Below are positions 5,900 through 59,262 of a stretch of 64,000 bases of DNA, piece after piece (the stretch's first letter is position 1; each line of letters opens with the position of its first letter). A program made the position numbers and the translations under genes. Below the pieces are notes generated by a model that worked only from the letters and a program-made list of their open reading frames with translations, was not told the origin of the DNA and ran no database searches. The DNA is taken from the NCBI RefSeq assembly GCF_002007565.1, contig NZ_CP015625.1:1860001-1924000 (forward strand), read 5' to 3'. This DNA is from Ditibartonella choladocola (GTDB taxonomy: Bacteria > Pseudomonadota > Alphaproteobacteria > Rhizobiales > Rhizobiaceae).

Positions 5900-6160
5900 A
5901 TCCCGTGTACTGGCCTTCAAGCCATCAAGCCCGAAGGCCTACCCTGTTTTAACTGCCACGGGGTGAGAACATTTCTCGATCTAGCTTAACCATCACTCTT
6001 CCAATTCCAAGTGCCTGCCTTCAAGCCATTAGCCGCCTGCCTTCAAGCCATTAGCCCCTCAAGCCCTGACCTGTTTCAACTTTCACACGACAAAAACACT
6101 TCCTGATTGAGCTTGCCTATTTTCCTCGTCAATCATATGAGCCTGCTTTCAAGCCGCCGG
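5900..6160. repeat. Degenerate short repeats around CTTCAAGCC
   Basis: The motif TTCAAGCCATTAGCC and variants recur (around 5928, 6015, 6034, 6053, 6140), with CCTGCCTTCAAGCCATTAG present twice 19 bp apart. Copies are irregularly spaced and diverged. No coding frame is supported. Confidence 0.55.
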
Positions 6161-6204
6161 GCCTGAAATAACTTACGGATTTTACCGGAATGGAATTTTT
6201 ATCC

Positions 6205-6855
6205 GGCTCATTCCGGCACACAACTTTACGCGGTTTATTTAGCCACACAACAGACTTTGCAACGTTTTATGCTTTTCGACCGGATTGCTCAGCGCCCAAG
6301 AAATGACTTAGCCGCTAAACAAAATTATCCCGCCCCCGCCAGTCATGAGCGCAATTCCGATTCTTTCAACAAATAGCTTTCAAGCTTTTATCAGCACATT
6401 TCTGAACAGCTTTCGTGTTACCGCTCATTCTGGCACACAACTTTACGTGGTTTATTTTGCCACAAAACAGACTTTGCGACGTTTTATAATTTCGGCCAGA
6501 TTGCTCAGCGCCCCAGAAATGACTGCGCCGCCAAACAAAATTATCCCGCCCCCGCCAGTCATGAGCGCAATTCCGATTCTTGCAACAAATAGCTTTCAAG
6601 CTTTTATAAGCACATTTCTAAACAGCTTTCGTGTTACCGGCTCATTCCGGCACACAACTTTACGTGGTTTATTTTGCCACACAGCAGACTTTGCAAAGTT
6701 TTATAATTTTCGACCGGATTGCTCAGCCCCCAAGAAAGACTGCGCCGCTAAACAAAATTATCCCGCCCCCGCCAGTCATGAGCGCAATTCCGATTCTTGC
6801 AACAAATAGCTTTCAAGCTTTTATCAGCACATTTCTGGACAGCTTTCGTGTTACC
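6205..6855. repeat. Three tandem copies of a ~217-bp unit
   Basis: The block that begins near GGCTCATTCCGGCACACAA recurs with CAACTTTACG at 6221, 6438 and 6655, a period of 217 bp. ATGAGCGCAATTCC recurs at 6345, 6561 and 6778, giving spacings of 216 and 217, so small indels separate the copies. Copies are highly similar. Open frames inside (for example 6345-6809) arise from the repeat and have no recognisable domain. The array lies in the carB-ftrA gap. Confidence 0.9.
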
Positions 6856-6960
6856 GGCTCTTCATCCCGCGCACTATGAGAAATGGGGAAAGGGAAAATG
6901 CGGAAAAGTGTTTCTATCGCATTGCTTTACTTATCATTTTTGCCCACCCACAACCTTTTA

Positions 6961-7086
6961 CGTGCCGATCACTTGCAACGTCCCGATTATTTGCGACGTG
7001 CCGATTGCTTTCATTGTGCCAATCGCGTTCGACGTGCCAACCCCCTATGAAGTGCCGATCGCATTTGATGCGCCAATAATTTCCAC
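6961..7086. repeat. Seven phased 18-bp units (CGTGCCGAT...)
   Basis: Seven consecutive 18-base units run from 6961 to 7086 without a phase slip. Most begin CGTGCCGAT or CGTGCCAA, and the second half varies. Because 18 is a multiple of 3, the frame through it reads as a hexapeptide repeat of the VPIxxx kind. That frame is short, has no good ribosome site and merges into the 217-bp repeat, so coding is doubtful. Confidence 0.85.
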
Positions 7087-7605
7087 TTCGGTTTAAAGCG
7101 ATTATCACTTCTGCTTCACCCTAAAAGCCGTTTTGGCTGAACCCTACCCGACTTGCCCCTCGCCGCCATAATCCTGCCCCACACATGCCCGCCTTAAAAT
7201 AACGGGTCTCATGAGCGACATTGTCACGTTTTATGTTTCTTTGATTCAATATTTTCTTAATTTTTTTTAAAGCTAAAAAATTTTAAAATAACAAACTCAC
7301 CCAGTTATTTTTAATAAATTATTTTATTTCATTATGAAATAAAATTAGCCTAAATATTTTTTTGAATAATATTTTCATTATTGCGATAAAATAAATAGTA
7401 TATTTTTTATTTTTTTACTTCTTTTACGCCGTCTAATATCCCGTTATCTATTATATATTCAATTGTTATTTTTCAACAAACAAAAGCAAAATTCGGCCAC
7501 TTTTATAAGTTTTATAAATGAACTTGATAATTTTGGTAAATTTTAAATTTGCGCTTTTGATAAAAGATGATATATATAGTCATGTTTTATTCCGAGGGTT
7601 AAATT
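7087..7605. other. AT-rich leader region upstream of ftrA
   Basis: From about 7240 to 7600 the sequence is very AT-rich, with many runs of A and T, then a purine-rich stretch GAGGG at 7594-7598 ahead of the ftrA ATG. It probably contains the ftr promoter and any iron-responsive operator (Irr or RirA type expected in this order), but I cannot point to a specific box. No gene is supported. Confidence 0.45.
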
Positions 7606-8139
7606 ATGAATTTAAACAAACTAATTCTGGCTGCTTCTTGCACTCTGTTTGCAACACCGGCTTTGGCTGTCGAATATCCGATTGGCGAACCACAGCACTG
7701 CGGTGGCCTTGAGATTGCGGCTGTTTATCTGCAACCGATCGAAATGGAGCCGGAGGGCATTATGCTTGCGGCTGCGAAGTCCGACATCCATCTGGAAGCG
7801 GATATTCATGCGACAGAGGATAATAAGAACGGTCTTCCGGAAGGCGCATGGGCACCCTATCTTCAGGTCTCATATGAATTGACCAAAGAAGGTGCAAAAG
7901 AGCCTTTGAGCGGTCATTTCCATCCTATGGTTGCCAATGACGGCCCGCACTATGGCGAAAATATCAAGCTCGATGGTGCTGGCAAATATCATTTGAAATA
8001 CACCATTTTGCCACCTTCAAAAGAGTCCATGTTCGGCCGCCATGTCGATAAAGAAACCGGCGTTGGCCCGTGGTTTGACAAATGCGTTGTCGAATATGAC
8101 TTCACCTATGCCGGTACCGGCAAAAAGGGTGGCTATTGA
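7606..8139 (+). CDS. ftrA: Periplasmic iron-binding protein of the FtrA/P19 family
   Basis: A 177-residue periplasmic protein with a signal peptide (MNLNKLILAASCTLFATPALA) followed by mature EYPIGEPQHCGGLEIAAVYL. It belongs to the P19/Tp34 (FetP, FtrA) family, dimeric metal-binding proteins that deliver iron to an Ftr1-type permease. Metal-site positions are visible in HLEADIHA and the acidic/His motifs around MVANDGPHYGENIKL. In Brucella FtrABCD imports ferrous iron at low pH, and the same four genes follow here in order. The 259-bp gap to ftrB contains a hairpin, so ftrA may be expressed above the rest. Confidence 0.9.
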   Translation: MNLNKLILAASCTLFATPALAVEYPIGEPQHCGGLEIAAVYLQPIEMEPEGIMLAAAKSDIHLEADIHATEDNKNGLPEGAWAPYLQVSYELTKEGAKEPLSGHFHPMVANDGPHYGENIKLDGAGKYHLKYTILPPSKESMFGRHVDKETGVGPWFDKCVVEYDFTYAGTGKKGGY

Positions 8140-8280
8140 TTGTTATGACCGGCAGTCTAATTCTGCCGGAAACAGTTTCGGGATAAGTTTCCAGTCAATC
8201 TTATCCCCAAAGATCGAGACCTGTTTGTAATGTCGGGGTTTACTTTCGATCATCCACCATTAGAAGTAACCCCTCCGAGC

Positions 8281-8320
8281 AGACCGGCCGTTGTGACCTC
8301 CACAGCCGGTCTTGCTTTTT
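8281..8320 (+). terminator. Hairpin with T-tract between ftrA and ftrB
   Basis: AGACCGGC (8281-8288) pairs with GCCGGTCT (8305-8312) and is followed by TGCTTTTT. An earlier seven-base stem without T-tract lies at 8149-8169, just after ftrA. The arrangement looks like a partial terminator inside the operon that would favour ftrA transcripts. Confidence 0.6.
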
Positions 8321-8398
8321 AGCGGGGATTTTTTGGTTCTCTGGAAAGTAAACCATTCATTCCGGAAAGCTCGCTTTGGTTCAAAAAAGGGTTTTGTT

Positions 8399-8722
8399 AT
8401 GCGCGCAATATTGGTTTTGCTGTTTTGTCTGTTTCCCCTCTTTGCCGGAGCCGACGAACTTTCGCTTTATAATGTAACCATCAAAGATGGTGTATTTGAA
8501 CCGCAATCAATTGAAGTACCCGCGGGACAACGTTTTAAAATTTCGGTTAAAAATATCGGTTCTGGGCCGGCCGAATTTGAAAACCTGTCAATGCGCGTTG
8601 AAAAAGTTTTAGGCGCAGGCGTTGAATCATTTGTTGTCATTCACCCGCTCAAACCCGGCAGTTACCATTTTATTGACGAATTTCACATGGATATGGCCGG
8701 TTTCGACATTAACGTAAAATAG
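8399..8722 (+). CDS. ftrB: Cupredoxin-domain component FtrB of the ferrous iron importer
   Basis: I place the start at ATG 8399, which gives 107 residues and a good signal peptide (MRAILVLLFCLFPLFAGA). A TTG start at 8312 would add 29 residues ahead of the signal peptide and lies in the terminator hairpin. The mature part (ELSLYNVTIKDGVFEPQSI) is a small cupredoxin-like fold. In Brucella FtrB is proposed to oxidise Fe2+ before transport through FtrC. The classical Cys ligand of type-1 copper proteins is absent; candidate ligands are Met and His near the C-terminus (EFHMDMAGF). ftrC starts 12 bp later. Confidence 0.85.
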   Translation: MRAILVLLFCLFPLFAGADELSLYNVTIKDGVFEPQSIEVPAGQRFKISVKNIGSGPAEFENLSMRVEKVLGAGVESFVVIHPLKPGSYHFIDEFHMDMAGFDINVK

Positions 8723-8734
8723 GAGAGCAGACAA

Positions 8735-9586
8735 ATGGGTGCACCTCTTTTCATCGTTTGGCGTGAAAGTATCGAAGCGCTACTCGTTATCGGCATCCTT
8801 TATACGTGGTTGCGGCGCGAAAATCTTTTAACGCTTAAAAACCGTTTGTGGGCGGGAACTGCATTAGGGCTTGTTCTTGCCGGAATTCTCGCCATTCTGT
8901 TTTATGTTGCGGGCACATGGTTTGCAGGCCCCGGCGGGGAATGGTTCTTCACCGCTATGATGGCCGTGGCCGCCCTTCTCATTATGCAAATGATCGTCTG
9001 GATGCACCACCACGGCGCTTCAATGAAACATACTCTGGAACGTGAAGCGGCCGAAAGCCTGCAATCTTCCGGCGGATTCGGTATTATGCTCCTTGCAATG
9101 ATTGCCGTTGCCCGCGAAGGCTCGGAAACAGTGGTGTTTCTTGCCGGTGTCGGAGCGCAACAAAATGGCGCTTCGCTCGGCATGTTCATTCTTGGTGGTG
9201 TGCTCGGCTTTATTCTTGCACTTTTCACTTTCTGGTTGTTGCAGAAATTTTCCAAAATCATCCCGTGGAGATGGTTTTTCTTGGGAAGTGAATTTGTCCT
9301 TCTCCTCATCGGTGGCGGTTTGTTGATTACTGCCTTTGACAAAGCGGCAGCCCAGATTTCGGCTTATGATTTACCCGAATGGCTCTACAGCTTTATGGAT
9401 GATCCGCTATGGAGTACAAGCTGGCTTATTCCCGATAACAGCACATTGACGGGACTGACCGGCTACCATGCGGAACCGTCTTTGATGCAAGTCGTTGTAT
9501 TGGCAGTTTACTGGATCGCAGCCATTGTTCTTTGTAACAGGAAGCCTGCCAAAACGGCGGTTCGCCCCCCATTGAAAGTTACCTGA
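8735..9586 (+). CDS. ftrC: Ftr1-type iron permease FtrC
   Basis: A 283-residue, seven-helix membrane protein of the iron/lead (ILT, FTR1/EfeU) family. Both family R-E-x-x-E iron-coordinating motifs are present: RESIE near residue 10 (VWRESIEALLVIGIL) and REGSE in the middle (IAVAREGSETVVFL). The last helix region reads FFLGSEFVLLLIGGGLLI. It forms the permease of FtrABCD in the inner membrane. An AGGAG ribosome site lies 10 bp before the ATG, and ftrD begins 22 bp downstream, consistent with one transcript. Confidence 0.93.
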   Translation: MGAPLFIVWRESIEALLVIGILYTWLRRENLLTLKNRLWAGTALGLVLAGILAILFYVAGTWFAGPGGEWFFTAMMAVAALLIMQMIVWMHHHGASMKHTLEREAAESLQSSGGFGIMLLAMIAVAREGSETVVFLAGVGAQQNGASLGMFILGGVLGFILALFTFWLLQKFSKIIPWRWFFLGSEFVLLLIGGGLLITAFDKAAAQISAYDLPEWLYSFMDDPLWSTSWLIPDNSTLTGLTGYHAEPSLMQVVVLAVYWIAAIVLCNRKPAKTAVRPPLKVT

Positions 9587-9608
9587 AACCAATTTTTTAA
9601 AAAAAACC

Positions 9609-11849: not shown

Positions 11850-11993
11850 TTGCCTTCTATAAAGAGGTTTTCTTTTACAAAAAATTTTTCTTCTACAAGG
11901 GGAGTGTCTTCAAAAAGGAGCCAGTCTTCAAAAAGGGCATACTCTTCCGGAAGAGTTTCGCCTTCAAAAGGCTTTTGTGTTCTAAGAGAAACG
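11850..11993. repeat. Eight phased 18-bp units (CTTCAAAAAGG type)
   Basis: Eight successive 18-base units fit NNNTCTTCNANAAGGNNN. They start at 11850, 11868, 11886, 11904, 11922, 11940, 11958 and 11976. The units are degenerate, but the phase never slips. The plus-strand frame over it reads Ser/Lys/Arg-rich hexapeptides (SSKRS-like); it has no ribosome site or domain and I do not call it a gene. Confidence 0.85.
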
Positions 11994-12056
11994 TGTTCGC
12001 ACGGATAAAGGTATTTTTGCCCGAAAATTATGAAAGATTGTTTGCCAAAAACCTGA

Positions 12057-14725: not shown

Positions 14726-14800
14726 CTTTCCCCCTATTTTTTCCCCCTCATTTTTCCCCCCTTATTTTTCCCCCCCTTATTTTTCCCCCCTTATTTTCCC
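14726..14800. repeat. Pyrimidine-rich 14-15-bp repeat (TTTTTCCCCCCTTA)
   Basis: About five units of TTTTTCCCCC(C)TTA with 14-15 bp period form an almost pure C/T tract on the plus strand. A pure polypyrimidine tract of this length could form triplex or H-DNA. The open frame across it is low-complexity Pro/Phe and is rejected as a gene. Confidence 0.8.
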
Positions 14801-15023
14801 ATGTCGGCTCGGCAATGTTTCGTCACATCTTTCCCGTTGTTTTGTCCCCATGTTTCCTAAGAAGTTTCCTGCGATATTTTTCTTGAACGTCGCCCGCGTT
14901 GTTTTCTGACCGGAATAACAAACATTCGCTCTTGAAAGCCAAACGGAAGAATATCGTTTTGCTATTTCAAGAAGAACGTCAACAAGCTGCTTGCACTTCT
15001 ATTTAGATAAGCTATAAATTTTA

Positions 15024-15225
15024 TTGACGGTTCCCCTTCAGGATGTCTTCAAAAGGGGAATAATAGGGAACACGGAAAAATTGACCGCACTCAAGGGATT
15101 TCAACCGTGGCTGCCCCCGCAACTGTAAACGGCAGCACCTTTTTTAGGGATTTATCCGGCCACTGCGAAAGCGGGAAGGTAAAAGGTGCAAAAAAAATGC
15201 CGCGAGCCAGGAGACCTGCCGTCAA
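15024..15225 (+). ncRNA. Cobalamin (B12) riboswitch
   Basis: The closing stem is TTGACGG (15024-15030) with CCGTCAA (15219-15225). Conserved core elements follow in order: GGGAACACGG (15066), the B12 box region GCTGCCCCCGCAACTGTAA (15110-15128), GGCAGCACC, CCACTGCGAAAGCGGGAAGGT (15160-15180), and GCCGCGAGCCAGGAGACCTGCC (15199-15220). A small hairpin at about 15229-15247 and then AAAGGAAAGG before an ATG at 15293 suggest translational control. The next recognisable genes are a BtuFCD-like importer. Confidence 0.96.
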
Positions 15226-15292
15226 TCATAGGCTTTCACGAGCCTGTCATTGAATATCCCTAACGCACGGTGGGTGCAAAGGAAAGGTAACC

Positions 15293-20591: not shown

Positions 20592-20795
20592 GTAAAATAC
20601 CAAACAGTTTGTTTTGCCGACGCAGCTCACAAAAAAACCAAACCTTCCCGATCTCCCGCTGCAAAGACAGTTCACTGCAAAACGTCGCTTGAAAAACTGC
20701 TGATGGTGTATTCGCCTTGAAAGCTTAGTGATCCTTGCTTTGTCGAATAAATCACTTTGAAGGATAAAAAGAATAATGCCGGTTCAGCCTCTATA

Positions 20796-21310
20796 AAGCT
20801 TGTGCCTGAAAGAGATTCCAAGCTTCCAAACAAGCCGCACATTACCTGCCCCGAACTGACTTGCCCGCTCATATGGTTGATCTTACCCGTGCATACATGA
20901 TTGACGGGTGCTACGCACCATCATAAAGCTTGTGCCCGCAAGAGATTTCAAGCTTCCAAACAAGCCGCACATTACCCGCCCCGAACTGATTTGCCCGCTC
21001 ATATGATTGATCTTACCCGTACATACATGATTGACGGGTGCTATGCACCATCTAAAGCTTGTGCCTGAAAGAGGTTTCAAGCTTCCAAACAAGCCGCACA
21101 TTACCTGCGCCGAACTGATTTGCCCGCTCATATGGTTGATCTTACCCGTGCATACATAATTGACGGGTACTATGCACCATCTAAAGCTTGTGCCTGTAAG
21201 CAGTTTCAGCGTCTAAACAGAGCGTGGTAACAACCGCGAAGACCTATTTCCCCCGCACCTATGATTGATACCGCCAGCACATATATGATTGACGTAATCT
21301 ATGCGCACAT
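20796..21310. repeat. Tandem 129-130-bp repeats, about 3.5 copies
   Basis: AAGCTTGTGCC recurs at 20796, 20926, 21055 and 21184 (130, 129 and 129 bp apart). The fourth unit decays after about 60 bases, though CATATATGATTGACG is still recognisable near 21280. Each unit contains CCGCACATTACC and TGATTGACGGGT. ORFs on the minus strand here are repeats of the same peptide and have no domain. The array lies between the aminotransferase terminator and the AbcR-like sRNA. Confidence 0.9.
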
Positions 21311-21634: not shown

Positions 21635-21757
21635 AAAAAAAAAGCCGGACAAATAGTCCGGCTGAAGTTTGAAGGTATCAGAGACTATAGTCAATCTGAC
21701 AAAACCTCCAGAGGGGAACACTCAAGAAACGCAATGGGAGGAGACGTCCACTTGAGA
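21635..21757 (-). ncRNA. AbcR-like (alpha-r15) trans-acting small RNA
   Basis: Read on the minus strand, a ~120-nt transcript would start near 21757 and end at a strong terminator, AGCCGGAC-loop-GTCCGGCT (21663-21656 with 21650-21643) followed by nine T. It folds as three stems. The first is closed by CTCAAG/CTTGAG and exposes CTCCTCCC, an anti-Shine-Dalgarno motif of the AbcR type; then come CCTCTGGAGG and GTCAGATTGAC...GTCTCTGAT. Length, layout and the neighbouring vtlR/lsrB and trxB genes match AbcR sRNAs of Rhizobiales, which bind Hfq and repress many ABC-transporter mRNAs. One copy is visible here; several relatives have two. Confidence 0.8.
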
Positions 21758-21762
21758 TGCCG

Positions 21763-26656: not shown

Positions 26657-26824
26657 CTTTTATGCCACTCTCGCCCCTGAGTTTTACCGCACTCTTACCC
26701 CTAAGTTTTACGCCACACTCATCTCTGAGTTTTACCCCATTCTTACCCCCTGAGTTTTACGCCACACTCATTTCTGAGTTTTACCCCACTCTTACCCCCT
26801 GAGTTTTACGCCACGTTCACCTAC
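26657..26824. repeat. Seven 24/25-bp units alternating in two types
   Basis: GAGTTTTAC begins units at 26679, 26703, 26727, 26752, 26776 and 26801, and a diverged unit precedes them from 26657. After the first pair the units alternate between GCCACACTCATCTCT and CCCCATTCTTACCCCCT types, so the evolving unit is really a 49-bp pair. Spacing alternates 24 and 25. Confidence 0.9.
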
Positions 26825-28304: not shown

Positions 28305-28621
28305 ACCTGCGGACCGACGAGGAGGAAACAGACCTGCTATATGATGACGGGGAAGCCAAACTGCCAACTGATAAAGAGAAAGCCTGCCCGTCATCTGACG
28401 GTGAGGAAGCCGATCTGCTAACTGATGACAAGAAGGCCAGCCTGCCATCTGACGACGAGAAAATCAAGCTTCCATCAGTTAACGAGAGTGATATAGCAAA
28501 TAAAATTGTTCGCCAACCTATCCCTGTTTTTAATTATATATTTTTCGCAGCGACTTATATTTTTCTATTCTTATCAATCGGTTTTATATCGAAACTGAAC
28601 TTGGGGATATATCCGTATTAA
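28184..28621 (+). CDS. Membrane protein with seven acidic nine-residue repeats
   Basis: The frame opens at TTG 28184 and encodes 145 residues. A hydrophobic N-terminus is followed by seven repeats of nine residues (DEKVNLRTD, EEETDLLYD, DGEAKLPTD, KEKACPSSD, GEEADLLTD, DKKASLPSD, DEKIKLPSV), then NESDIANKIVRQ and a C-terminal helix FNYIFFAATYIFLFLSIGFI. No family recognised. The 27-bp unit keeps the frame, and an acidic charge pattern is conserved between copies, which argues that it is translated. The Sel1 gene starts 4 bp after its stop, so they are probably coexpressed. The upstream start is uncertain (see 28086). Confidence 0.5.
   Translation: MFRHSTVIFYYIFIQYNIVFQKNRASYDKKVSQSSVDEKVNLRTDEEETDLLYDDGEAKLPTDKEKACPSSDGEEADLLTDDKKASLPSDDEKIKLPSVNESDIANKIVRQPIPVFNYIFFAATYIFLFLSIGFISKLNLGIYPY
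28292..28480 (+). repeat. Seven in-frame 27-bp repeats
   Basis: Seven exact-length 27-base units, each beginning GAxGA/AAxGA and encoding a nine-residue acidic segment. Unlike the gaps' minisatellites they keep an open frame. Confidence 0.88.
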
Positions 28622-29638: not shown

Positions 29639-30054
29639 CTGAATAACATGGTCATTGCGCAACAGGAATGGCGTGGACACTGCGGCAACCGGAATGGCGT
29701 GGTTATTGCGCCGACGGGAATGGCGTGGACATTGCGTCAACCGGAACGGCGTGGTCATTGCTTCAACCGGAATAACATGGTCATTGCGTCAACCGGAATG
29801 GCGTGGACACTGCGGCAACCGGAATGGCGTGGTTATTGCGTCAACAGGAATGGCGTGGTCACTGCGGCAACCGGAACGGCGTGGTCATTGCGTCAACCGG
29901 AACGGCGTGGTCACTGCGTCAACAGGAATGGCGTGGACATTGCTTTAACCGGAACGGCGTGGACACTGCGGCAACCGGAACGGCGTGGACACTGCGTCAA
30001 CCGGAACGGCGTGGTTATTGTGTCAACCGGAACGGCGTGGTTATTGCGCCTGCT
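29639..30054. repeat. Sixteen 26-bp tandem units (GGAATGGCGTGG...)
   Basis: Sixteen units of 26 bases, of which the last fifteen start every 26 bp from 29665 to 30029 with no slip. The consensus is GGAAYGGCGTGGWCAYTGCGKCAACC; differences cluster at a few positions (GGAAT or GGAAC, GGACA, GGTCA or GGTTA, CGGC or CGTC). 26 is not a multiple of three, so each frame reads the same 26-residue peptide period, which explains the long ORFs here. No spacers, so not CRISPR. Confidence 0.95.
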
Positions 30055-32167: not shown

Positions 32168-32851
32168 ATGAAAAAAATACTCGGTTCCTTGTTGTTTGGT
32201 ACATTTTTGTTAACGACACAGGCAGCACAAGCAGCAGAGGCGCTCGTAACAGCGCCTTTGAATTTCAGAGACGGGCCAAGTACTGCCTATGCCATTCGCG
32301 GCACAATAGCTCCGGGTGAAATCGTCGGCGTGCGCGGATGTTCGGGCAATTGGTGTGAAATCAATTATGGCCCGCGCATCGGTTGGGCTTCCGCGTCATA
32401 TCTGGCCTTCCGCAATGGCGAAGCAGTTTATAACAGCTATAATCGCCCCTCTTCATCGACATTCAATGTCATTATCGGTGGCGGTTACTATGATGATGAC
32501 TGGTATTACCGCCGTTATCGCCGGCCGCATTGGCACGGGGATCATCGTCCACCTCCACCACCGCCACCACATTGGGGCTTTGACCGGCCGCACCGTCCGC
32601 CTCCGGGCATGCGCCCGCCACCATTCAGACCCGGCCCCGGTATGCCTCCGCCGCCACATGGCGGGCCGGGTGGCCCGTTTCCCGGTGGTGGCCCCGGTGG
32701 AGGGCCTGGTATGCCTCCGCCGCCGCATGGCGGGCCGGGGGGCCCATTTCCCGGTGGTGGCCCCGGTGGAGGGCCTGGTATGCCTCCGCCGCCACATGGC
32801 GGGCCGGGTGGCCCGTTTCCCGGTGGTGGCCCCGGTGGAGGGCCGCGTTAA
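32168..32851 (+). CDS. Secreted SH3-domain protein with Pro/Gly-rich repeat tail
   Basis: 227 residues: a signal peptide (MKKILGSLLFGTFLLTTQAAQA), one bacterial SH3 (SH3b) domain at about 25-80 (VTAPLNFRDGPSTAYAIRG, CSGNWCEINYGPRIGWASASYL), an aromatic Tyr/Asp/Arg linker, and a tail from about residue 125 rich in Pro, Gly and His. The tail ends in three nearly perfect 23-residue copies of GMPPPPHGGPGGPFPGGGP-type sequence. SH3b domains in exported proteins often bind peptidoglycan. The tail is probably unstructured and surface exposed, and its copy number may vary between strains. A terminator follows. Confidence 0.9.
   Translation: MKKILGSLLFGTFLLTTQAAQAAEALVTAPLNFRDGPSTAYAIRGTIAPGEIVGVRGCSGNWCEINYGPRIGWASASYLAFRNGEAVYNSYNRPSSSTFNVIIGGGYYDDDWYYRRYRRPHWHGDHRPPPPPPPHWGFDRPHRPPPGMRPPPFRPGPGMPPPPHGGPGGPFPGGGPGGGPGMPPPPHGGPGGPFPGGGPGGGPGMPPPPHGGPGGPFPGGGPGGGPR
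32639..32845 (+). repeat. Three in-frame 69-bp repeats
   Basis: Copies start at 32639, 32708 and 32777, with GGTATGCCTCCG at each start. They are nearly identical, much less diverged than the intergenic arrays, which suggests recent expansion or contraction. Confidence 0.93.
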
Positions 32852-37557: not shown

Positions 37558-37710
37558 GCCAAATGTTTGTAACAAAAAAATATATTTTGTGATGGAAAAA
37601 AATATTAAATAAATTATTTACCATAAGAAAGTCACAAGCAGCGTTCAGGCTGCGTTCAGAAAATGAGATATAGAATTATTTTCATGAATCGAATTCAAAG
37701 GAGTTCAACC

Positions 37711-38184
37711 ATGAAAAATTTTGCAAAATTGGCAATAGTTTCTGCTGTATCGGCAGTGATGGTTGTGGCCCCGCTCGCTGCCGCATCGGCGCATGACCAT
37801 TATTGGCGTGGTCCGGGCTATTGGGACGGTCCACGTTATTGGGATCACCACCATCATCATCACGATCACGGGGATGCGGTTGCAGCCGGTGTGGTTGGCC
37901 TTGCAGCAGGTGCGCTAATCGGCAGTGCCTTGTCGCAACCATCCGAACCACGGGTAATCTATCAGGCTCCGCCTCCACCGCCAGCCTACTATCCGCCTGC
38001 TCCGAGATATTATCAACCGGCTCGTCCTTATTATCCGCCTGCACCAACGGCTTATAAGCCGGTCTACCAGCCATGGAGTGCCGGTTGGCGCAATTATTGC
38101 GCATCCAAATACCGGTCGTTCAATCCACGGACGGGAACCTATCGCGGCGTAGATGGTCTTAACCATTTTTGTAACGCCAACTGA
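37711..38184 (+). CDS. BA14K-family exported protein
   Basis: 157 residues with a signal peptide (MKNFAKLAIVSAVSAVMVV then PLAAASA), a His/Trp-rich segment with six consecutive His (YWDHHHHHHDHGD), a glycine-zipper helix (AAGVVGLAAGALIGSAL), a Pro/Tyr-rich middle and the C-terminal BA14K motif (WRNYCASKYRSFNPRTGTY and DGLNHFCNAN). BA14K is an immunoreactive Brucella protein with lectin-like activity; the C-terminal Cys pair and RSFxPxTGTY define the family. The ATG at 37711 has AAGGAG upstream and starts the signal peptide; 37663 would not. Its 3' end and terminator are duplicated five times downstream. Confidence 0.9.
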   Translation: MKNFAKLAIVSAVSAVMVVAPLAAASAHDHYWRGPGYWDGPRYWDHHHHHHDHGDAVAAGVVGLAAGALIGSALSQPSEPRVIYQAPPPPPAYYPPAPRYYQPARPYYPPAPTAYKPVYQPWSAGWRNYCASKYRSFNPRTGTYRGVDGLNHFCNAN

Positions 38185-38202
38185 TTTGATAGCATTTGAT
38201 TT

Positions 38203-38234
38203 AAAAATACCCGGCCCTGTGTCGGGTATTTTTT
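38203..38234 (+). terminator. Terminator of the BA14K gene
   Basis: AAAAATACCCG (38203-38213) and CGGGTATTTTTT (38223-38234) form a stem with T-tract. The same hairpin recurs at about 38618, 39027, 39437 and 39847 in the repeat array. Confidence 0.92.
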
Positions 38235-38440
38235 AACCTTCAATGAAACAATGCTAGATAAGCAGCATCAATTCCCCATTCAAAAAACAAACAAACGAAA
38301 TTGCAATTTTTAACAAAAGAGGCATTTGTCGTTCGATTGACCGCTTGAAAGCGTCGGAACAATCTGCAAGGCATTTCCTCATCCTCATCTTTTCCGATAA
38401 CAGAAAGCTTCCTGATAATATGGGGGAACTGCCCGCCCCT

Positions 38441-38595
38441 GTTATCCGCCTGCACCAACGGCTTATAAGCCGGTCTACGAGCCTTGGAGTGCCGGTTCAC
38501 GCATTGATTGCGCCTCCCGAATACCGGTCGTTCAACCCGCGGACGGGAACTTGATCGCCGTAGTTGGTCTTAACCATTTTTGTAACGCCAACTGA
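38441..38595 (+). pseudogene. BA14K 3' fragment, copy 1
   Basis: GTTATCCGCCTGCACCAACG to AACGCCAACTGA matches the parent gene from about 38030 to 38184. GGAACCTATCGCGGCG of the parent is GGAACTTGATCGCCG here, so codons after TGT are out of frame and read a stop. There is no signal peptide or start. Further copies: 38852-39006, 39264-39418, 39675-39829 and 40085-40235. Confidence 0.85.
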
Positions 38596-38851
38596 TTTGA
38601 TAGCATTTGATTTAAAAAATACCCGGCCTTGTGTCGGGTATTTTTTTAACCCTCAATGAAACAATGCTAGATAAGCAGCATCAATTCCCCATTCAAAAAA
38701 CAAACAAACGAAATTGCAATTTTTAACAGAATAGGCATTTGTCGTTCGATTGACCGCTTGAAAGCGTCGGAACAATCTGCAAGGCATTTCTTCACCCTCA
38801 TCTTTTCCGACAACGGAAAGCTTCCTGATAATATGGGGGCTGCCCGCCGCT

Positions 38852-39006
38852 GTTATCTGCCTGCGCCAACGGCTTATAAGCCGGTCTACCAGCCCTGAAG
38901 TGCCGGTTCACGCATTGATTGCGCCTCCCGAATACCGGTCGTTCAATCCGCAAACGGGAACTTGATCGCCGTAGATGGTCTTAACCATTTTTGTAACGCC
39001 AACTGA
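38852..39006 (+). pseudogene. BA14K 3' fragment, copy 2
   Basis: Same segment, with the same GGAACTTGATC change and an extra TGA in AGCCCTGAAG. Confidence 0.8.
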
Positions 39007-39263
39007 TTTGATAGCATTTGATTTAAAAATACCCGGCCTTGTGTCGGGTATTTTTTTAACTTTCAACGAAACAATGCTAGATAAGCAGCATCAATTCCCC
39101 ATTCAAAAAACAAACAAACGAAATTGCAATTTTTAACAGAATAGGCATTTGTCGTTCGGTTGATCGCTTGAAAGCGCCGGAACAATTGGCAAGGCATTTC
39201 TTCACCCTCATCTTTTCCGATAACGGGAAGCTTCCTGATAATATGAGGGGGATGCCCGCCCCT

Positions 39264-39418
39264 GTTATCCGCCTGCACCAACGGCTTATAAGCCGGTCTA
39301 CCAGCCTTGGAGTGCCGGTTCACGCATTGATTGCGCCTCCCGAATACCGGTCATTCAATCCGCAAACGGGAACTTGATCGCCGTAGATGGTCTTAACCAT
39401 TTTTGTAACGCCAACTGA
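39264..39418 (+). pseudogene. BA14K 3' fragment, copy 3
   Basis: Same segment. RSFNPxTGT is still readable in one frame, then a stop. Confidence 0.8.
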
Positions 39419-39674
39419 TTTGATAGCATTTGATTTAAAAATACCCGGCCTTGTGTCGGGTATTTTTTAACTTTCAACGAAACAATGCTAGATAAGCAGC
39501 ATCAATTCCCCATTCAAAAAACAAACAAACGAAATTGCAATTTTTAACAGAATAGGCATTTGTCGTTCGGTTGATCGCTTGAAAGCGCCGGAACAATTGG
39601 CAAGGCATTTCTTCACCCTCATCTTTTCCGATAACGTAAAGCTTCCTGATAATATGGGGGAACTGCCCGCCGCT

Positions 39675-39829
39675 GTTATCCGCTGTCACCAACGGCTTAT
39701 AAGCCGGTCTACCAGCCATGGAGTGCCGGTTCACGCATTGATTGCGCCTCCCGAATACCGGTCGTTCAATCCGCAAACGGGAACTTGATCGGCGTAGATG
39801 GTCTTAACCATTTTTGTAACGCCAACTGA
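39675..39829 (+). pseudogene. BA14K 3' fragment, copy 4
   Basis: Same segment, with CCGCTGTCACC instead of CCGCCTGCACC. Confidence 0.8.
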
Positions 39830-40084
39830 TTTGATAGCATTTGATTTAAAAATACCCGGCCTTGTGTCGGGTATTTTTTTAACTTTCAACGAAACAATGC
39901 TAGATAAGCAGCATCAATTCCCCATTCAAAAAACAAACAAACGAAATTGCAATTTTTAACAGAATAGGCATTTGTCGTTCGGTTGATCGCTTGAAAGCGC
40001 CGGAACAATCGGCAAGGCATTTCTTCATCTTTATCTTCTCCGATAACGGAAAGCTTCCTGATAATATGGGGGCTGCCCGCCGCT

Positions 40085-40235
40085 GTTATCCGCCTGCACC
40101 AACGGCTTATAAGCCGGTCTACCAGCCATGAAGTGCCGGTTCACGCATTGATTGCGCCTCCCGAATACCGGTCATTCAATCCGCGGACGGGAACTTGATC
40201 GCCGTCGATAGCCTTAACCATTTTTGTAACGCCAA
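40085..40235 (+). pseudogene. BA14K 3' fragment, copy 5 (end of array)
   Basis: Same segment, diverging at GCCAAGCGAA, where the parent stop and terminator are lost. Confidence 0.75.
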
Positions 40236-41541: not shown

Positions 41542-42082
41542 AACAGATCCTTCGATATTCGATTGCAAGAATTCAGAACTTTATCAACATGTGACATATC
41601 AATATCAAGATTGGTCAATATCAAGATTGGCAAATTTTGCCGGAATGATCTTTAGTTTGCCAGATGTCTTTATTATTGTTTACATCTATTTCTGCCGATG
41701 TCACGGGGTTTGCCTTGCTTGATAAAAAGTGGCAAGCCGGAAAAGTCGAAATTTGTAAAACGGCCTGCAAAAACTTTTTTTGAAAAAACAGCCCTTTTAA
41801 AGCCAAAACCGGCGTAGCCCTTCGGTTGCCCACGCCGATAAACATCGCCCAAAAACCCGACATTGATCGTAAAATTGGCAAACTCTATTATTTTAACCGC
41901 TCATGATTTTATTCATGTTATGATTTTATCCACGTCATTAACGATAAAACGAGTGTAAAGTTCTGTTATGAATGGCAGGCGCGTTTGTCATGGTATTGCC
42001 TAAAATATGGAGCAATGAGAGGGTAGCTATCTCGACAGGGATAAATTCTTCCGATAAACTCGGCTCAATCCGGATATGAAAA
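41542..42082. other. Divergent gap between the MBL gene and the response regulator
   Basis: No gene. ATATCAAGATTGG occurs twice at about 41601-41622 (ATATCAATATCAAGATTGGTCAATATCAAGATTGG). The rest is featureless. Promoters for both neighbours are expected. Confidence 0.4.
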
Positions 42083-44835: not shown

Positions 44836-45060
44836 AATGCTGCCCATTCAAAGCCGATATTTTCAGACCTTAAAAGCCCCTTGCTTTCAAACGCCGCCCA
44901 TTCAAAGCCGACATCTTCAAGCCCTGACACCTTAAAGCCTTTGCTTTCAAATGCCCGCTCTCAAAGCCAACGCCTTAAAAGTTGATACTTTCAAACCGCC
45001 ATGGCTTTAAATCGCACAGGCTTAAAATGCTTGCACTTCCAAATGTCGGCGTTTTGAAGC
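44836..45060. repeat. Degenerate ~18-bp repeats around TTCAAAGCC
   Basis: GCCCATTCAAAGCCGA occurs at about 44842 and 44899, and TTTCAAACGCC, CCTTAAAAGCC and TCTTCAAGCCC fill the interval with about 17-19-bp spacing. Two ~56-bp higher-order copies are recognisable. It lies in the convergent DUF3008-csaA gap. Confidence 0.6.
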
Positions 45061-49793: not shown

Positions 49794-50308
49794 TTGTTTG
49801 ACAAGTAAAAGGCAGGTTTGGTTTCGGGTTTCGCAAGGTTTTCAAGGTGAAACTTTTGCGGGGCACAAAAACGAAAAGCAGAAAACTTTACCAATGGTAA
49901 CTTGCCAACGAAAAGCCAAGACCATCAATACGAAGCTAAAGAATTAAAGATGATAAAGGCAAATTCTCTAGCGGTAAATTTATCATAAAAATCCGGTGAC
50001 AAGGAAAAGCCGGTCACCGCTAAGCCCCTCCCCCAAAAAGAAGTTACGCCTGCCAAGCCCCCGAAAAAAGTAAAGTTACAAAAGCGGGAATTGGCAAGGC
50101 AGGAAATGTCTGTCAGCTTTTGCCGTTTAAATCCGGTCATTGCGAAACCGGATAGCATTTGGCTGTGAATTCTTTTTTTAAACGGTGCAAAAACAAAACA
50201 GTCAATTAGAAAATGGCAGGAGTGACAATATGAACTCTTGCAATCTGATAACAAAAAGTTAAAACCGCAGCCAGAAATTCTGTTTTCTTTAGAGCCAGGG
50301 GCCAAGCC
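49794..50308. other. Gap upstream of prs
   Basis: No gene on the plus strand. The long minus-strand ORF 49925-50590 extends into prs and is its shadow. Nothing else recognised; the prs promoter must be in the last ~150 bp. Confidence 0.45.
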
Positions 50309-51241: not shown

Positions 51242-51262
51242 AAGTTTCATTTGTTAACGAAT

Positions 51263-53924: not shown

Positions 53925-53932
53925 TGTGACTC

Positions 53933-53964
53933 AAAAGGCGGGGAAATTTTCCCGCCTTTTCTTT
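53933..53964 (+). terminator. Terminator between rplY and pth
   Basis: AAAAGGCGGG (53933-53942) with CCCGCCTTTT (53951-53960), then CTTT. Only 17-20 bases before the pth ATG. Confidence 0.8.
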
Positions 53965-53981
53965 CCAAGCGAGGTTTAGCC

Positions 53982-54692: not shown

Positions 54693-54763
54693 ATGATTCC
54701 GCTTTGGCAATTGGCGGGCACAAATAGCCGCTCGTTTTAAGTGTTATATAAGAGGGTCATACA

Positions 54764-55112
54764 GTTCCTGCCTCAAGCAATTGCTACCTTGGGCAATTCT
54801 GCTTCGAGCGATACCTGCCTCAAGCCGTTCCTGCCTCAAGCATTTTCTATTTAAAGCTGTTCCTGCTTCAAACAATTCCGGTTTCAAGCTATTCCTGTTT
54901 TAAGCAATTCCTGCCTTAAACAATTTCTGCCTTAAACAATTTCTGCTTCAAATGGTTCCTGCTTCAAGCAGTTTCTATTTAAAGCTATTCCTGTTTTAAG
55001 CAATTCCGGCCTTAAACAATTACTGCTTCAAGCCATACCTCAAGCGATTCCTACATCAAGCCGTTCCTGCTTCAAGCTGTTCCCGCTTTCAACAGTTTCT
55101 GCGTCAAACAAT
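54764..55112. repeat. About 21 units of a 16-bp repeat (ATTCCTGCTTCAAGCA)
   Basis: Consecutive 16-base units of consensus RTTYCTGYYTYAARCA fill the interval, with one short (12-bp) unit near 55040 and a few degenerate ones at the left. All units are on the same strand. They are diverged but keep phase, and TTCCTG/TTCAAGC cores are frequent. It lies 70 bp after pth. Confidence 0.93.
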
Positions 55113-55470
55113 CCAATTGTGATTTTCGCCCCCGCTTGCCCCCTTTTGAAAAACAGCAGGGTCGCATATCTACCGGCACTCGAATTTTTCAAAGCCGACA
55201 AAGCGATCAATTGCCGACCTGACCAAACCGCTTTTTTCCAACTGCTTTAACAGGAGAAAAAGCGGGAAAAACAATCAGGGGTGAATGACATTTGTTACCG
55301 GATGCAATTTTAAAAAACAAAAAAATTCATTCAAAAAACACAAAATCCGGAATGGCAAAATTCCGGTTGTTTGCGTTTTTTCCAGAAAAGAACACCCGCA
55401 AAACATTCAAATGTCTTGCGGGAAAATTTCTTCAGCTATGGTGTTTTTGTCAGCAATGACAGGGTTTATC
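55113..55470. other. Gap after the 16-bp array
   Basis: 358 bp without a supported gene. The A-rich run near 55310-55350 is low complexity. No terminator of the minus-strand transpeptidase is clear. Confidence 0.4.
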
Positions 55471-56139: not shown

Positions 56140-56357
56140 GATAACTCCATACAAAATATCGGATTGTTTTAAGCCTGAAAGCTTAGCCAAACGTTAAAAT
56201 AGACAAGATTCCGGCAAAAACGAGAGTGGTCATCAAAATCGTGTGGACTGTATCTTTTTCGCATCATGACCGGCTCTTTAACTGGTATCTGTTTAAAAAC
56301 GTGCTATAGAACCAACCATGTTTACACGCTTATCGGATCAGGATTGCGAGAATTTCA

Positions 56358-57461
56358 ATGGGATTTAAATGTGGTATCGTCGGATTGCCGAATGTGGGAA
56401 AATCCACACTGTTTAATGCTTTGACAAAAACAGCAGCAGCACAGGCTGCGAATTATCCTTTTTGCACAATCGAGCCGAATACTGGCGAAGTTGCTGTGCC
56501 GGATCCGCGGTTGAAAAAGATTGCTTCTATTGCCGGTTCCAAGGAAATCATCCCCACACGCATCAGCTTTGTCGATATTGCAGGGCTTGTGCGTGGCGCA
56601 TCGAAAGGCGAAGGGTTAGGCAACCAGTTTTTGGCCAATATTCGCGAAGTTGATGCCATTGTCCATGTGCTGCGCTGTTTCATCGACGAGGATATTACCC
56701 ATGTTGAAGGGCGAATTGATCCGGTGTCAGACGCTGCAACCGTTGAAACAGAATTGATGCTGTCCGATCTTGAAAGCCTCGAACGGCGTATTGTACAGAT
56801 GAGAAAGCGTGCGACAGGCAAAGACAAGGAAGCTTTGACCGTACTTCCGATGATGGAAGAAGCTTTGAAGCTTTTACAAAATGGCAAACCGGTTCGGCTT
56901 TTGACCAAAGATATTTCGGAAGATGACCGGCAAATTCTGGTTTCGTTCAATCTGTTGACCTCGAAGCCCGTGCTTTATGTTTGCAATGTTGCCGAAAGTG
57001 ATGCGGCAACAGGCAATGATTTTTCCAAAGCTGTCGAGAAAATGGCTGCCGAACAAGGCGCTGAAAGCGTGATTATTTCTGCCGAAATCGAGGCGGAAGT
57101 GGCGCAATTGCCGGAAGCGGAAGCCAAAGAATATCTCGAAGAACTGGGGCTTCATGAACCAGGGCTCGATCGTTTAATTCGCGCGGGCTATCACCTGCTT
57201 GATCTTATTACCTATTTTACCTGCGGCCCCAAAGAAACCCGTGCCTGGACCATTAAACGGGGAACCAAAGCCCCGCAAGCAGCCGGTGTTATCCATTCCG
57301 ATTTTGAACGCGGTTTTATTCGCGCCCAAACCATCTCCTATAAGGATTATGTCGAACTGGGTGGCGAAGTGGCAGCAAAGGAAGCCGGTAAAGCGCGTGA
57401 CGAGGGCAAGGATTATGTTGTCGAAGATGGCGACATCATGCTTTTCAAACATAATTCCTGA
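56358..57461 (+). CDS. ychF: Redox-regulated Obg-like ATPase YchF
   Basis: 367 residues. Obg-family P-loop ATPase (OLA1/YchF) that binds ribosomes and is involved in stress responses. G1 is GLPNVGKSTLFNAL, G3 is DIAGLVRGASKGEGLGNQFL; the G4 motif is altered (NVAESD instead of NKxD), which explains ATP preference in the family. A coiled coil (MLSDLESLERRIVQM) and a C-terminal TGS domain (IKRGTKAPQAAGVIHSDFERGFIRAQT) follow. Terminator after. Confidence 0.98.
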   Translation: MGFKCGIVGLPNVGKSTLFNALTKTAAAQAANYPFCTIEPNTGEVAVPDPRLKKIASIAGSKEIIPTRISFVDIAGLVRGASKGEGLGNQFLANIREVDAIVHVLRCFIDEDITHVEGRIDPVSDAATVETELMLSDLESLERRIVQMRKRATGKDKEALTVLPMMEEALKLLQNGKPVRLLTKDISEDDRQILVSFNLLTSKPVLYVCNVAESDAATGNDFSKAVEKMAAEQGAESVIISAEIEAEVAQLPEAEAKEYLEELGLHEPGLDRLIRAGYHLLDLITYFTCGPKETRAWTIKRGTKAPQAAGVIHSDFERGFIRAQTISYKDYVELGGEVAAKEAGKARDEGKDYVVEDGDIMLFKHNS

Positions 57462-57564
57462 TTTGTTATCAACAAATAGCGCCGGTTTTACTCAATTTCC
57501 GGCCGTTATTTTGTGACCAATCCGGTTTTAATATTTTTCGTGCCCGTCTCGTAAACCATAAAAT

Positions 57565-57599
57565 AAAAGCCGTCCGGAAAAAATTCCGGACGGCTTTTA
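57565..57599. terminator. Bidirectional terminator of ychF and the PRC-barrel gene
   Basis: AAAAGCCGTCCGG (57565-57577) with CCGGACGGCTTTT (57586-57598), A-run and T-run on both sides. Confidence 0.9.
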
Positions 57600-57629
57600 T
57601 TCAAAGAACTCTATAGAAAACCGATAAGC

Positions 57630-57680
57630 TTTCGATAGAAAAATAGCCTTTCGATAGAGAAATAGCCTTTCGATAGAGAT
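57630..57680. repeat. Three 19-bp units (TTTCGATAGAGAAATAGCC)
   Basis: TTTCGATAGA at 57630, 57649 and 57668, period 19 bp. Confidence 0.85.
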
Positions 57681-57712
57681 AGCGTTCTCGCCTATCAAAC
57701 TGCTATTTTTAA

Positions 57713-58153
57713 TCAGAGCTTTTTATGCTCTTCATATTTGAATTCGGGAGCGGCCATCAGCCCTTCCTTGGTTACATTGACCACAACCTTCCACGCACCA
57801 TTTTCATGACGCATGTAGATTGTTGAAGGATCAACCACAACATAGCGTTCACCCACACCAAGAAAACCACCTACACCCACAACAATGCCCGCTACATTAT
57901 TCTGGCGAATGATAATGTCCTTGATCTGGCCGATTGCTTGATCCTGCTTGTTCAATACTTTTGTATCAATCAAGCTTGAAGCAATAAAATCTGTTTCGGT
58001 CGGTGTGACATAACGCACAACGACATCACCATTCGGCAACTTGACTTCCGAAGCCGGTTCTTTCGGCGCTTCGATAGTGATCTTCGGTGATTGCGCAAAA
58101 GCGCTCCCAGCGATTGTTGCTGCCAAAACAGTGATAAGTGCCAGTCTTTTCAT
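57713..58153 (-). CDS. Secreted PRC-barrel domain protein
   Basis: 146 residues, signal peptide MKRLALITVLAATIAGSAFA, then a PRC-barrel domain at about 50-130 (DFIASSLIDTKVLNKQDQAIGQIKD with VAGIVVGVGGFLGVGERYVVV). Small periplasmic PRC-barrel proteins are common in Rhizobiales; their function is unclear. Convergent with ychF. Confidence 0.9.
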   Translation of the reverse strand: MKRLALITVLAATIAGSAFAQSPKITIEAPKEPASEVKLPNGDVVVRYVTPTETDFIASSLIDTKVLNKQDQAIGQIKDIIIRQNNVAGIVVGVGGFLGVGERYVVVDPSTIYMRHENGAWKVVVNVTKEGLMAAPEFKYEEHKKL

Positions 58154-58464
58154 TTAATACGCCTCATAATAATGTTAGTTACTTAAATAAAACGTATAAA
58201 AGATAAGAATGTTCCATTTTATTTATATTTTTTAATAATTATTTATTTTTTAAAACTGAAAATGGATATTATTGTTATATTATTGCGTTTGATTTTATTA
58301 TATATATCTAATATGAACTTCATTTACTCGATTTAAGTTTTATCTGACCATTCTCTTTTTTGCATGACTGATTGTTGCTTGAAGAAAAATATACCAATCT
58401 TGAACGGCTTTTAACGCCAAGCCGGATTTTGCGAAAATCGGCAGAGTTGAATAGCCACTTGTCT
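58154..58464. other. AT-rich gap upstream of the PRC-barrel gene
   Basis: 311 bp strongly AT-rich, likely promoter region of the minus-strand PRC-barrel gene. No ORF or repeat. Confidence 0.4.
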
Positions 58465-58542
58465 CACCACACAAGATATTTTTAGCCCACAAAAGATATT
58501 TTTAGCCTACACAGGATATTTTAACCCACACAAGATATTTGC
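58465..58542. repeat. Four 20-bp units (CACACAAGATATTTTTAGCC)
   Basis: AGATATT or GGATATT at 58474, 58494, 58514 and 58533, period 20, 20, 19. Confidence 0.88.
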
Positions 58543-58581
58543 AAGTGCCGAACTGCAACCTTGATTGCTTTTTAAACTTCT

Positions 58582-58679
58582 CGTTTTCAACCTCCCGTTT
58601 TTAACGTGTCGTTTTTAACCTGCCGTTTTCAAACTCCCGTTTTCAACTTGTCGTTTTCGACCTGTCTTTTTATGTGGCA
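58582..58679. repeat. Seven phased 14-bp units (CGTTTTCAACCTGC)
   Basis: Units begin at 58582, 58596, 58610, 58624, 58638, 58652 and 58666 (the last diverged), always 14 bp apart. Directly after the 20-bp array. Confidence 0.9.
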
Positions 58680-58772
58680 TTTTCCCGAAAGATGCCCAAT
58701 CATCTTCAATAAAACAGGTTCACAAGAAAACAGAGCCAAGCGCAGAATAGAAACACGCGCAAAACAAAAACA

Positions 58773-58842
58773 ACCATAAAACTGGGACAGTCACGAAACA
58801 GAGACAGGCACGAAAAAGAGACAGGAACGAAACAGGGACAAG
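58773..58842. repeat. Three to four 17-bp units (CACGAAACAGAGACAGG)
   Basis: CACGAAACAGAGACAGG at 58792, 58809 and 58826 (17-bp period) with a degenerate unit before. Confidence 0.8.
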
Positions 58843-59030
58843 TGCGGCTGAAACACTTTTCCCGCCCCTTTCCGGACTGTGCAAAATTAGAAACCCGCCT
58901 GCCGAATGAGCCGGTTTAATGCGAGCCTCATCACTAAAGAAGACGGCTTGGCACGCATGAACACGTGCCAATGAAGACCACTTGGCCAATAGAACCGGTT
59001 GCCAGGTACAACCTGTTGCCAAATAAGACT

Positions 59031-59262
59031 GCCCATTAACTGAGACTTCCGGCTAGCCAGCTTGCAAAACAAGGTCATTTGCTACACAAGGCTGCATGTC
59101 AAACGAGACCGGTTGCCAAATAAGACTGCCCATTAACCAAGACTTCCCGTTAGCCAGCTTGCAAAACAAGGTCATTTGCCACACAAGGCTGCATGTCAAA
59201 CGAGACCGGTTGCCAAATAAGACTGCCCATTAACCAAGACTTCCCGCTAAATAAGACTGCTT
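59031..59262. repeat. 97-bp tandem repeat, about 2.4 copies
   Basis: GCCCATTAACNNAGACTTCC at 59031, 59128 and 59225 (97 bp). Copies are nearly identical. Inside the unit weak ~17-bp periodicity (GCCAAATAAGACT and variants) continues leftwards to about 58940, so the 97-bp unit seems to have grown out of a shorter repeat. Confidence 0.9.

What the first reader, a model, noticed from the sequence alone, without database searches (positions are those of the whole stretch)
5900..59262. Nearly every large intergenic gap carries its own, unrelated tandem repeat
Counting by eye, at least 15 separate arrays lie in gaps: 217 bp x3 (6205), 18 bp x7 (6961), 18 bp x8 (11850), C/T 14-15 bp (14726), 129 bp x3.5 (20796), 24/25 bp x7 (26657), 26 bp x16 (29639), 411 bp x5 (38235), ~18 bp (44836), 16 bp x21 (54764), 19 bp x3 (57630), 20 bp x4, 14 bp x7, 17 bp x3 and 97 bp x2.4 (58465-59262). 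Units differ between loci, copies within a locus are diverged, but phase is kept. This suggests a genome-wide process that grows local repeats from whatever sequence is there, rather than spread of one element. I do not know of a description of it; it may be known for this clade.
Basis: partly seen in the sequence, partly recalled or inferred. Interest (0 to 1): 0.72.

Follow-up and report, generated by a model that had tools for sequence, protein, structure and literature searches.

The report
Home-grown tandem repeats between genes
In this genome, likely a bee-gut Bartonella, many long gaps between genes contain their own unrelated tandem repeats, which likely grew by repeated local copying of whatever DNA lay there; a similar process is already reported in another bacterium, Ehrlichia ruminantium.

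Summary
'Nearly every large gap' fits this window (9 of 9 gaps of 800 bp or more) but not the rest of the sampled genome (20 of 46); in repeat share the window exceeds all 40 other stretches. Units are locus-specific: 366 gaps share 7 similar pairs, none from the window. Two arrays show an origin. The 217-bp unit, three copies here, has one homologous stretch in each of three relatives. The 411-bp unit is the 3' end of a BA14K gene plus its terminator and downstream DNA, copied 5.4 times; a relative has its own duplication of that gene end. Arrays are rare within 150 bp upstream of starts (1.4% against 9.7%). Array copies equal 41% of the window's gap growth over relative G014; the rest is unexplained, and an indel scan recognised few tandem duplications. 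Best reading: local tandem duplication in weakly constrained gaps, as stated for Ehrlichia ruminantium (PMC10710844, passage). New member of a known kind.

The parts
6013..6056 (.). 22-bp unit, 2.0 copies; also 22x2.0 in relative G018
   Evidence: TRF; G018
6203..6860 (.). 217-bp unit, 3.0 copies; one homologous stretch in G018, G007 and G021
   Evidence: single place in own genome
6960..7040 (.). 18-bp unit, diverged copies; G007 has an 18-bp array with similar DNA in the same gap
11850..12000 (.). 18-bp period, diverged; TRF core 11889-11937 (2.7 copies)
14730..14797 (.). 14-bp C/T-rich unit, 4.8 copies, upstream of a cobalamin riboswitch that lies outside the array
20794..21219 (.). 129-bp unit, 3.3 copies
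26658..26821 (.). 24-bp unit (49-bp higher period), 6.8 copies
28351..28454 (.). 54-bp unit, 1.9 copies; G007 has similar DNA in a 27x6.2 array in the same gap
29649..30048 (.). 26-bp unit, 15.4 copies; 30 bp of matching DNA in the same gap of G007
37711..38184 (+). BA14K-like gene whose 3' end seeds the 411-bp array
   Evidence: Pfam PF07886, (ORF 37663-38184); start at 37711 read and called
38031..40235 (+). 411-bp unit, 5.4 copies: gene 3' end, terminator hairpin (five places), downstream DNA; copies after the first share decayed gene-end letters
54765..55112 (.). 16-bp unit, 22 copies (80-bp higher period)
57629..57679 (.). 19-bp unit, 2.7 copies, just after a hairpin downstream of the ychF-like gene
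58467..58540 (.). 20-bp unit, 3.8 copies
58569..58671 (.). 14-bp unit, 7.3 copies (42-bp higher period)
58786..58840 (.). 17-bp unit, 3.2 copies
59011..59249 (.). 97-bp unit, 2.5 copies
2139..2356 (.). contrast: divergent (promoter) gap without arrays, 218/218/219/220/222 bp in own/G021/G007/G014/G008

Best explanation
Many gaps between genes of this genome hold locus-specific tandem arrays that were likely made by repeated local tandem duplication of whatever DNA lay there. Inferred route: a first duplication by replication slippage or a short-homology error (81 of 120 sampled arrays have units of 14-23 bp, some 100-411 bp), then more copies by slippage or unequal exchange between copies, then decay by ordinary substitution. 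Shown: units are unrelated between loci; two long units have single-copy homologues in the same gap of relatives; one unit is a gene's own 3' end with its terminator; arrays are rare just upstream of start codons. Inferred: arrays persist where selection against extra DNA is weak (3' sides of genes), and with decayed arrays and other insertions they lengthen gaps in this lineage. Why this clade does it more is not explained.
For: Repeats cover 6.7% of noncoding DNA in an 864-kb sample (4.6% without the window) against about 0.1% in shuffled gaps. Locus-specific units: 7 similar pairs among 366 gaps, none with a window gap. Birth cases: 217-bp unit three copies here, one stretch in G018, G007, G021; 411-bp unit is a gene end plus terminator, amplified after decay, with a separate ~439-bp duplication of the same gene end in G007 and one more copy there than in G021. 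10 of 23 window arrays have unit DNA in the orthologous gap of at least one of four relatives. Position: convergent gaps 13.7%, codirectional 6.0%, divergent 2.9% repeat; 1.4% within 150 bp upstream of a start, 9.7% elsewhere. Exact two-copy duplications: 9 of 36 have 4 bp or more of extra homology against about 2% by chance. Gap substitution is no faster than at four-fold sites. Gap growth over G014 correlates with array-added bases (25 gaps, Spearman 0.78).
Against: A global-alignment scan of gap indels recognised few tandem duplications: 5 of 176 (G021-G007), 6 of 786 (own-G007), 2 of 506 (own-G021); I judge its cheap gap extension unsuitable, but I did not redo it. Arrays equal only 3,238 of 7,856 bp of growth over G014, and 1,808 of those are one array. 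13 of 23 window arrays have no unit DNA in any of the four relatives searched, and 8 of 13 none in G018, so their origin in place is not shown. 14 of 36 exact duplications have no extra homology. Own is not consistently longer than G021 or G007 (window non-divergent gaps: longer in 8 of 26 and 9 of 29, shorter in 8 and 11). Some divergent gaps do vary (window 41542-42082; one gap in L083). Relative G014 is repeat-poor inside the clade.
Confidence: 0.75

Rival explanations
1. The arrays are selected for a job at 3' ends, such as stacked terminators, Rho-binding sites or insulators between convergent genes.
For: Arrays are densest in convergent gaps; the 411-bp array repeats a terminator hairpin five times and the same gene end is duplicated in G007.
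Against: Units and copy numbers are not kept between species in the same gap; 92 of 129 gaps of 400 bp or more outside the window have none; the C-rich strand of codirectional arrays follows the replication half, not the gene strand (skew +0.12 and -0.15 on the gene strand).
Confidence: 0.08
2. The long gaps are remnants of dead genes, and the repeats are a minor decoration.
For: In ant-associated Bartonellaceae long gaps hold gene remnants (PMC6044324, passages); 59% of growth over G014 is not visible array.
Against: 6 of 65 array gaps and 13 of 187 other gaps (200 bp or more) match any of 1,941 proteins from the sampled stretches; in the window only the copied BA14K end does. The protein set is limited to sampled stretches of this genus, so other remnants could be missed.
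Confidence: 0.1
3. The repeats are copies of one or a few mobile or dispersed repeat families.
For: A few gaps elsewhere do share DNA (7 pairs).
Against: No window gap shares DNA with any of the other sampled gaps; the 217-bp array matches one place in the whole genome. Single short units would escape this test.
Confidence: 0.02
4. The arrays are assembly artefacts.
For: The sequencing method of this genome is unknown to me; repeats are known to cause assembly errors (PMC6868369, listing and abstract start only).
Against: Copies differ (median 90% match), arrays occur in several separately held genomes, and a 22x2.0 array is shared with G018.
Confidence: 0.03

Closest known systems
Ehrlichia ruminantium intergenic tandem-repeat expansion/contraction (Collins 2005, Frutos 2006: not held; statement seen in PMC10710844)
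   Same: Long gaps, low coding share, tandem repeats in noncoding DNA that change gap length.
   Different: There the process is stated to be active between isolates and the coding share is about 64%; here only species could be compared and the sampled coding share is 77.5%. The genome here is larger and its relatives of this kind live in the bee gut lumen (PMC6044324 passage).
VNTR loci used for typing (e.g. MLVA of Bartonella henselae, PMC3428342, search listing)
   Same: Locus-specific tandem arrays.
   Different: Strain variability is not shown here; here they are a large share of gap DNA.
Long gaps of ant-associated Bartonellaceae (PMC6044324, passages)
   Same: Insect-associated relatives with low coding density and gaps over 1 kb.
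   Different: There BlastX of long gaps found gene remnants; here few array gaps match a protein of the set searched.

Membership tests
Ehrlichia-type intergenic tandem-repeat turnover | Tandem repeats concentrated in noncoding DNA | tested here: met
   6.7% of noncoding against 2.0% of coding bases, the coding part dominated by two very large repeat genes and 27 of 31 coding arrays having periods divisible by 3
Ehrlichia-type intergenic tandem-repeat turnover | Copy number varies among isolates of one species | not testable with these tools
   One genome per species held; between species 217-bp unit three copies against one
Ehrlichia-type intergenic tandem-repeat turnover | Low coding share with long gaps (about 64% stated) | tested here: inconclusive
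   77.5% coding in the 864-kb sample, 64% in the window by my gene caller
Ehrlichia-type intergenic tandem-repeat turnover | Gap length changes through the arrays | tested here: met
   Array-added bases correlate with gap growth over G014, Spearman 0.78 in 25 gaps, but account for 41% of it
Dispersed intergenic repeat family (REP/ERIC/MIRU type, recalled) | Same sequence at many loci | tested here: not met
   7 similar pairs among 366 gaps, none with the window
Repair-defect mutator | Loss of a repeat-stabilising gene that tracks the arrays | tested here: inconclusive
   RecJ over cut-off in 25 of 25 genomes; SbcC over cut-off in 0 of 25, repeat-poor ones included, and in only 1 of 14 controls, so the cut-off is strict; mutS and others not tested
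Gene-remnant gaps | Protein-like remnants in the gaps | tested here: not met
   6 of 65 array gaps match any of 1,941 proteins; limited protein set

The most novel reading that the evidence does not exclude
A gut-symbiont Bartonella lineage runs against the usual bacterial loss of noncoding DNA: its gaps are growing, largely through tandem duplications born in place on the 3' sides of genes, with gene ends and their terminators serving repeatedly as seeds.
Probability: 0.33. Interest if true: 0.6.

Novelty: new member of a known kind. Interest (0 to 1): 0.4.

Why it matters
If right, it is a counterpart to the Ehrlichia case outside the obligate intracellular lifestyle, with syntenic relatives at graded distances, so birth, growth and decay of intergenic arrays can be followed gap by gap. 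If net growth holds genome-wide, it is a bacterial lineage adding noncoding DNA. The arrays could also serve as strain markers for bee-gut Bartonella.

Tried and rejected
Rho-site idea: the C-rich strand of codirectional arrays follows the replication half, not the gene strand, as gap DNA does in general (with L048 an exception). Only 73 of 120 arrays have the leading-strand sign, so no special array skew is claimed. Repair genes: RecJ and SbcC do not track the arrays; others not tested. Hypermutation of gaps: identity in gaps is at or above that of four-fold sites (alignment inflates gap identity). Hidden decayed arrays as the bulk of gap DNA: self-similar stretches at lags 8-60 cover 5.1% of own gap DNA; in that test G013 shuffles are also high (0.18), so that row is not used. 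Indel scan by global alignment: found few tandem duplications (5 of 176, 6 of 786, 2 of 506); set aside because cheap gap extension split unalignable stretches, and not redone. The first attempt to pair G021 and G007 regions by coordinate mapped only two of eight regions; pairs were then chosen by BLAST overlap. The carB scan of named genomes returned named Bartonella (koehlerae, grahamii) but none of the bee group, so the organism is named by inference only. The set 'uvrB loci L009-L026' printed as genus members contains loci of other families too and is not used.
Full report
Observation. The window is G000:C1:1860001-1924000 of a 2,907,212-base single contig. TRF at score 40 or more lists 39 rows. 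Lag tests against 300 shuffles of ten places support nine; the '~18 bp at 44836' fails. Twenty shuffles of the 28 gaps of 100 bp or more give 0.35 TRF rows (score 50 or more) each against 28 real rows.

Organism. No tool names it. 'Bee-gut group' is inference.

Genome-wide. Forty further 20-kb stretches plus the window make 864 kb, 30% of the genome. Genes were called with my own codon-model script, so coding limits are approximate; its first run missed the BA14K gene. Repeats cover 13,125 of 194,629 noncoding bases (6.7%), 4.6% without the window; shuffled gaps give 183 of 167,953. The coding share (2.0%) is dominated by two very large repeat genes. After merging overlapping rows 120 intergenic and 31 coding arrays remain; of the 120, 57 have units of 16-20 bp, 81 of 14-23 bp, and the longest unit is 411 bp. 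Outside the window 7 of 9 gaps of 1.5 kb or more, 13 of 37 of 800-1500 bp, 17 of 83 of 400-800 bp and 14 of 95 of 200-400 bp carry an array; in the window 4 of 4, 5 of 5, 3 of 7 and 2 of 12.

Relatives. Noncoding repeat share in samples of 100-280 kb: G021 5.3%, G007 5.2%, G008 6.6%, G014 0.8%, G003 0.7%, G013 0.3%, G004 0.4%. A count that does not depend on gene calls (period at least 10 bp, not divisible by 3) gives per 100 kb: own 9.0 without the window, G007 8.3 (555 kb), G021 6.1, G008 5.7, G004 5.0, G013 4.0, G014 3.3, G003 0, and 1.6 in 80 alphaproteobacterial carB loci, two of them Bartonella; 1 in 100 kb from five other families. So own exceeds the wider class five- to sixfold in number and about ninefold in bases (714 against 83 per 100 kb), and G013 and G004 about twofold in number and fourfold in bases. 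G014, a close relative, is repeat-poor in 120 kb.

Locus specificity. All-against-all BLAST of 366 own gaps (169,770 bases) gives 7 similar pairs, none with a window gap; shuffled gaps give 0. The 217-bp array matches one place in the genome. Single short units would escape the BLAST test.

Birth of arrays. G018, the closest genome by UvrB, has one homologous 217-bp stretch where this genome has three; G007 and G021 have one partial stretch each. The 411-bp array starts inside the 3' end of a BA14K gene (PF07886); each unit repeats the gene end, a terminator-like hairpin and downstream DNA, and the hairpin occurs at five places. Copies after the first share altered gene-end letters that the intact gene lacks (by eye), so a decayed copy was itself amplified. 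In the same gap G007 has a ~439-bp period with three gene-end copies, G021 one intact and one decayed copy, and own and G007 units match over about the first 205 bp only; that duplication recurred at this gene end is inference. Of 23 window array rows, 10 have unit DNA in the orthologous gap of at least one of G021, G007, G014 and G008 (for three rows only G007 could be compared); four of the ten (two 18-bp rows, 54 bp, 411 bp) overlap an array there, 13 have none. G018 contigs span 13 of the 23, and 5 of the 13 show unit DNA, one as an array (22x2.0).

Where arrays sit. Of 45 called window genes, G007 has 45, G021, G014 and G008 44 each and G003 36 in the same region. Of 8 divergent gaps of 200 bp or more in the window, 7 have nearly constant length in own, G021, G007 and G014 and no own array; the eighth (41542-42082) varies and has two small arrays. 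Outside the window one divergent gap (L083) differs greatly from G021. Array share: convergent 13.7%, codirectional 6.0%, divergent 2.9%. In gaps of 300 bp or more: 1.4% within 150 bp upstream of a start, 9.7% elsewhere, 6.3% near stops. The cobalamin riboswitch and the ar15 RNA lie in array gaps but outside the arrays.

Growth. Over 25 orthologous gaps own exceeds G014 by 7,856 bp; array copies beyond the first equal 3,238 bp (41%), 1,808 of them in the 411-bp array; the 16x22 array was scored at its 80-bp period and so undercounted. In the window's non-divergent gaps own is longer by more than 10 bp than G014 in 16 of 26 (shorter in 3) and than G008 in 18 of 24 (shorter in 1), but against G021 8 of 26 (shorter 8), G007 9 of 29 (shorter 11) and G003 8 of 13 (shorter 3, yet G003 is longer in total). 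Outside the window: G021 longer in 11 of 21 (shorter 2), G007 13 of 51 (shorter 10), G008 3 of 3, G014 no non-divergent gap, G003 3 of 11 (shorter 1). Growth on the branch to own, G021 and G007 is the simpler reading, but rests mostly on this window.

Mechanism. Gap identity is at or above that of four-fold sites (0.89 against 0.85 for G021-G007), so no hypermutation is needed. Exact two-copy duplications pooled from five genomes: 9 of 36 have 4 bp or more of extra homology, against about 2% by a simple chance formula; 14 have none. This fits slippage or short-homology duplication for part of the cases. Against the reading, a global-alignment indel scan recognised few tandem duplications (5 of 176, 6 of 786, 2 of 506); a BLAST view of the same G021-G007 gaps shows duplications of about 440 and 100 bp but also stretches with no resolved origin. 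Repair genes tested do not explain the clade.

Literature. [quoted passage not shown] the original papers are not held. Searches aimed at bee-gut Bartonella listed no title or abstract start that describes such arrays; I saw passages of PMC6044324 and PMC10710844 only, and the library is open-licence only, so this is weak evidence of absence.

Verdict. Real, locus-specific arrays, two with clear local origin, in weakly constrained gaps: a new member of a known kind.

Noticed in passing
L084 (G000:C1:1814254, 351 bp x 19) and L078 (G000:C1:948924, 342 bp x 9.8): Two very large in-frame repeat arrays (6.7 and 3.3 kb) inside coding sequence, units of 117 and 114 codons.
   Followed up: no
window 15011-15237 (+) and 21640-21758 (-): Cobalamin riboswitch and an ar15-family RNA by Rfam, each in a gap that also holds an array.
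   Followed up: partly
window 32639-32844: 69-bp x 3.0 in-frame Gly/Pro-rich repeat in an SH3-domain protein gene, not an intergenic array.
   Followed up: no
G000 sampled stretches: Intergenic arrays are denser on the right half (1.42-2.9 Mb): 0.70 against 0.37 per kb of noncoding DNA without the window, partly because it has more long gaps.
   Followed up: partly
L048 (gaps at G000:C1:2433842 and 2438333): Two nearby gaps share an 844-bp stretch at 92% identity.
   Followed up: no
G003 gaps orthologous to window 49794-50308 and 54693-55470: 3.1-kb and 5.4-kb intervals in G003 where own has 515 and 778 bp, possibly extra genes.
   Followed up: no
16 same-genus genomes, G000-G015: No SbcC match over the cut-off; best genus match is weak, E 5e-9 in G012.
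   Followed up: no
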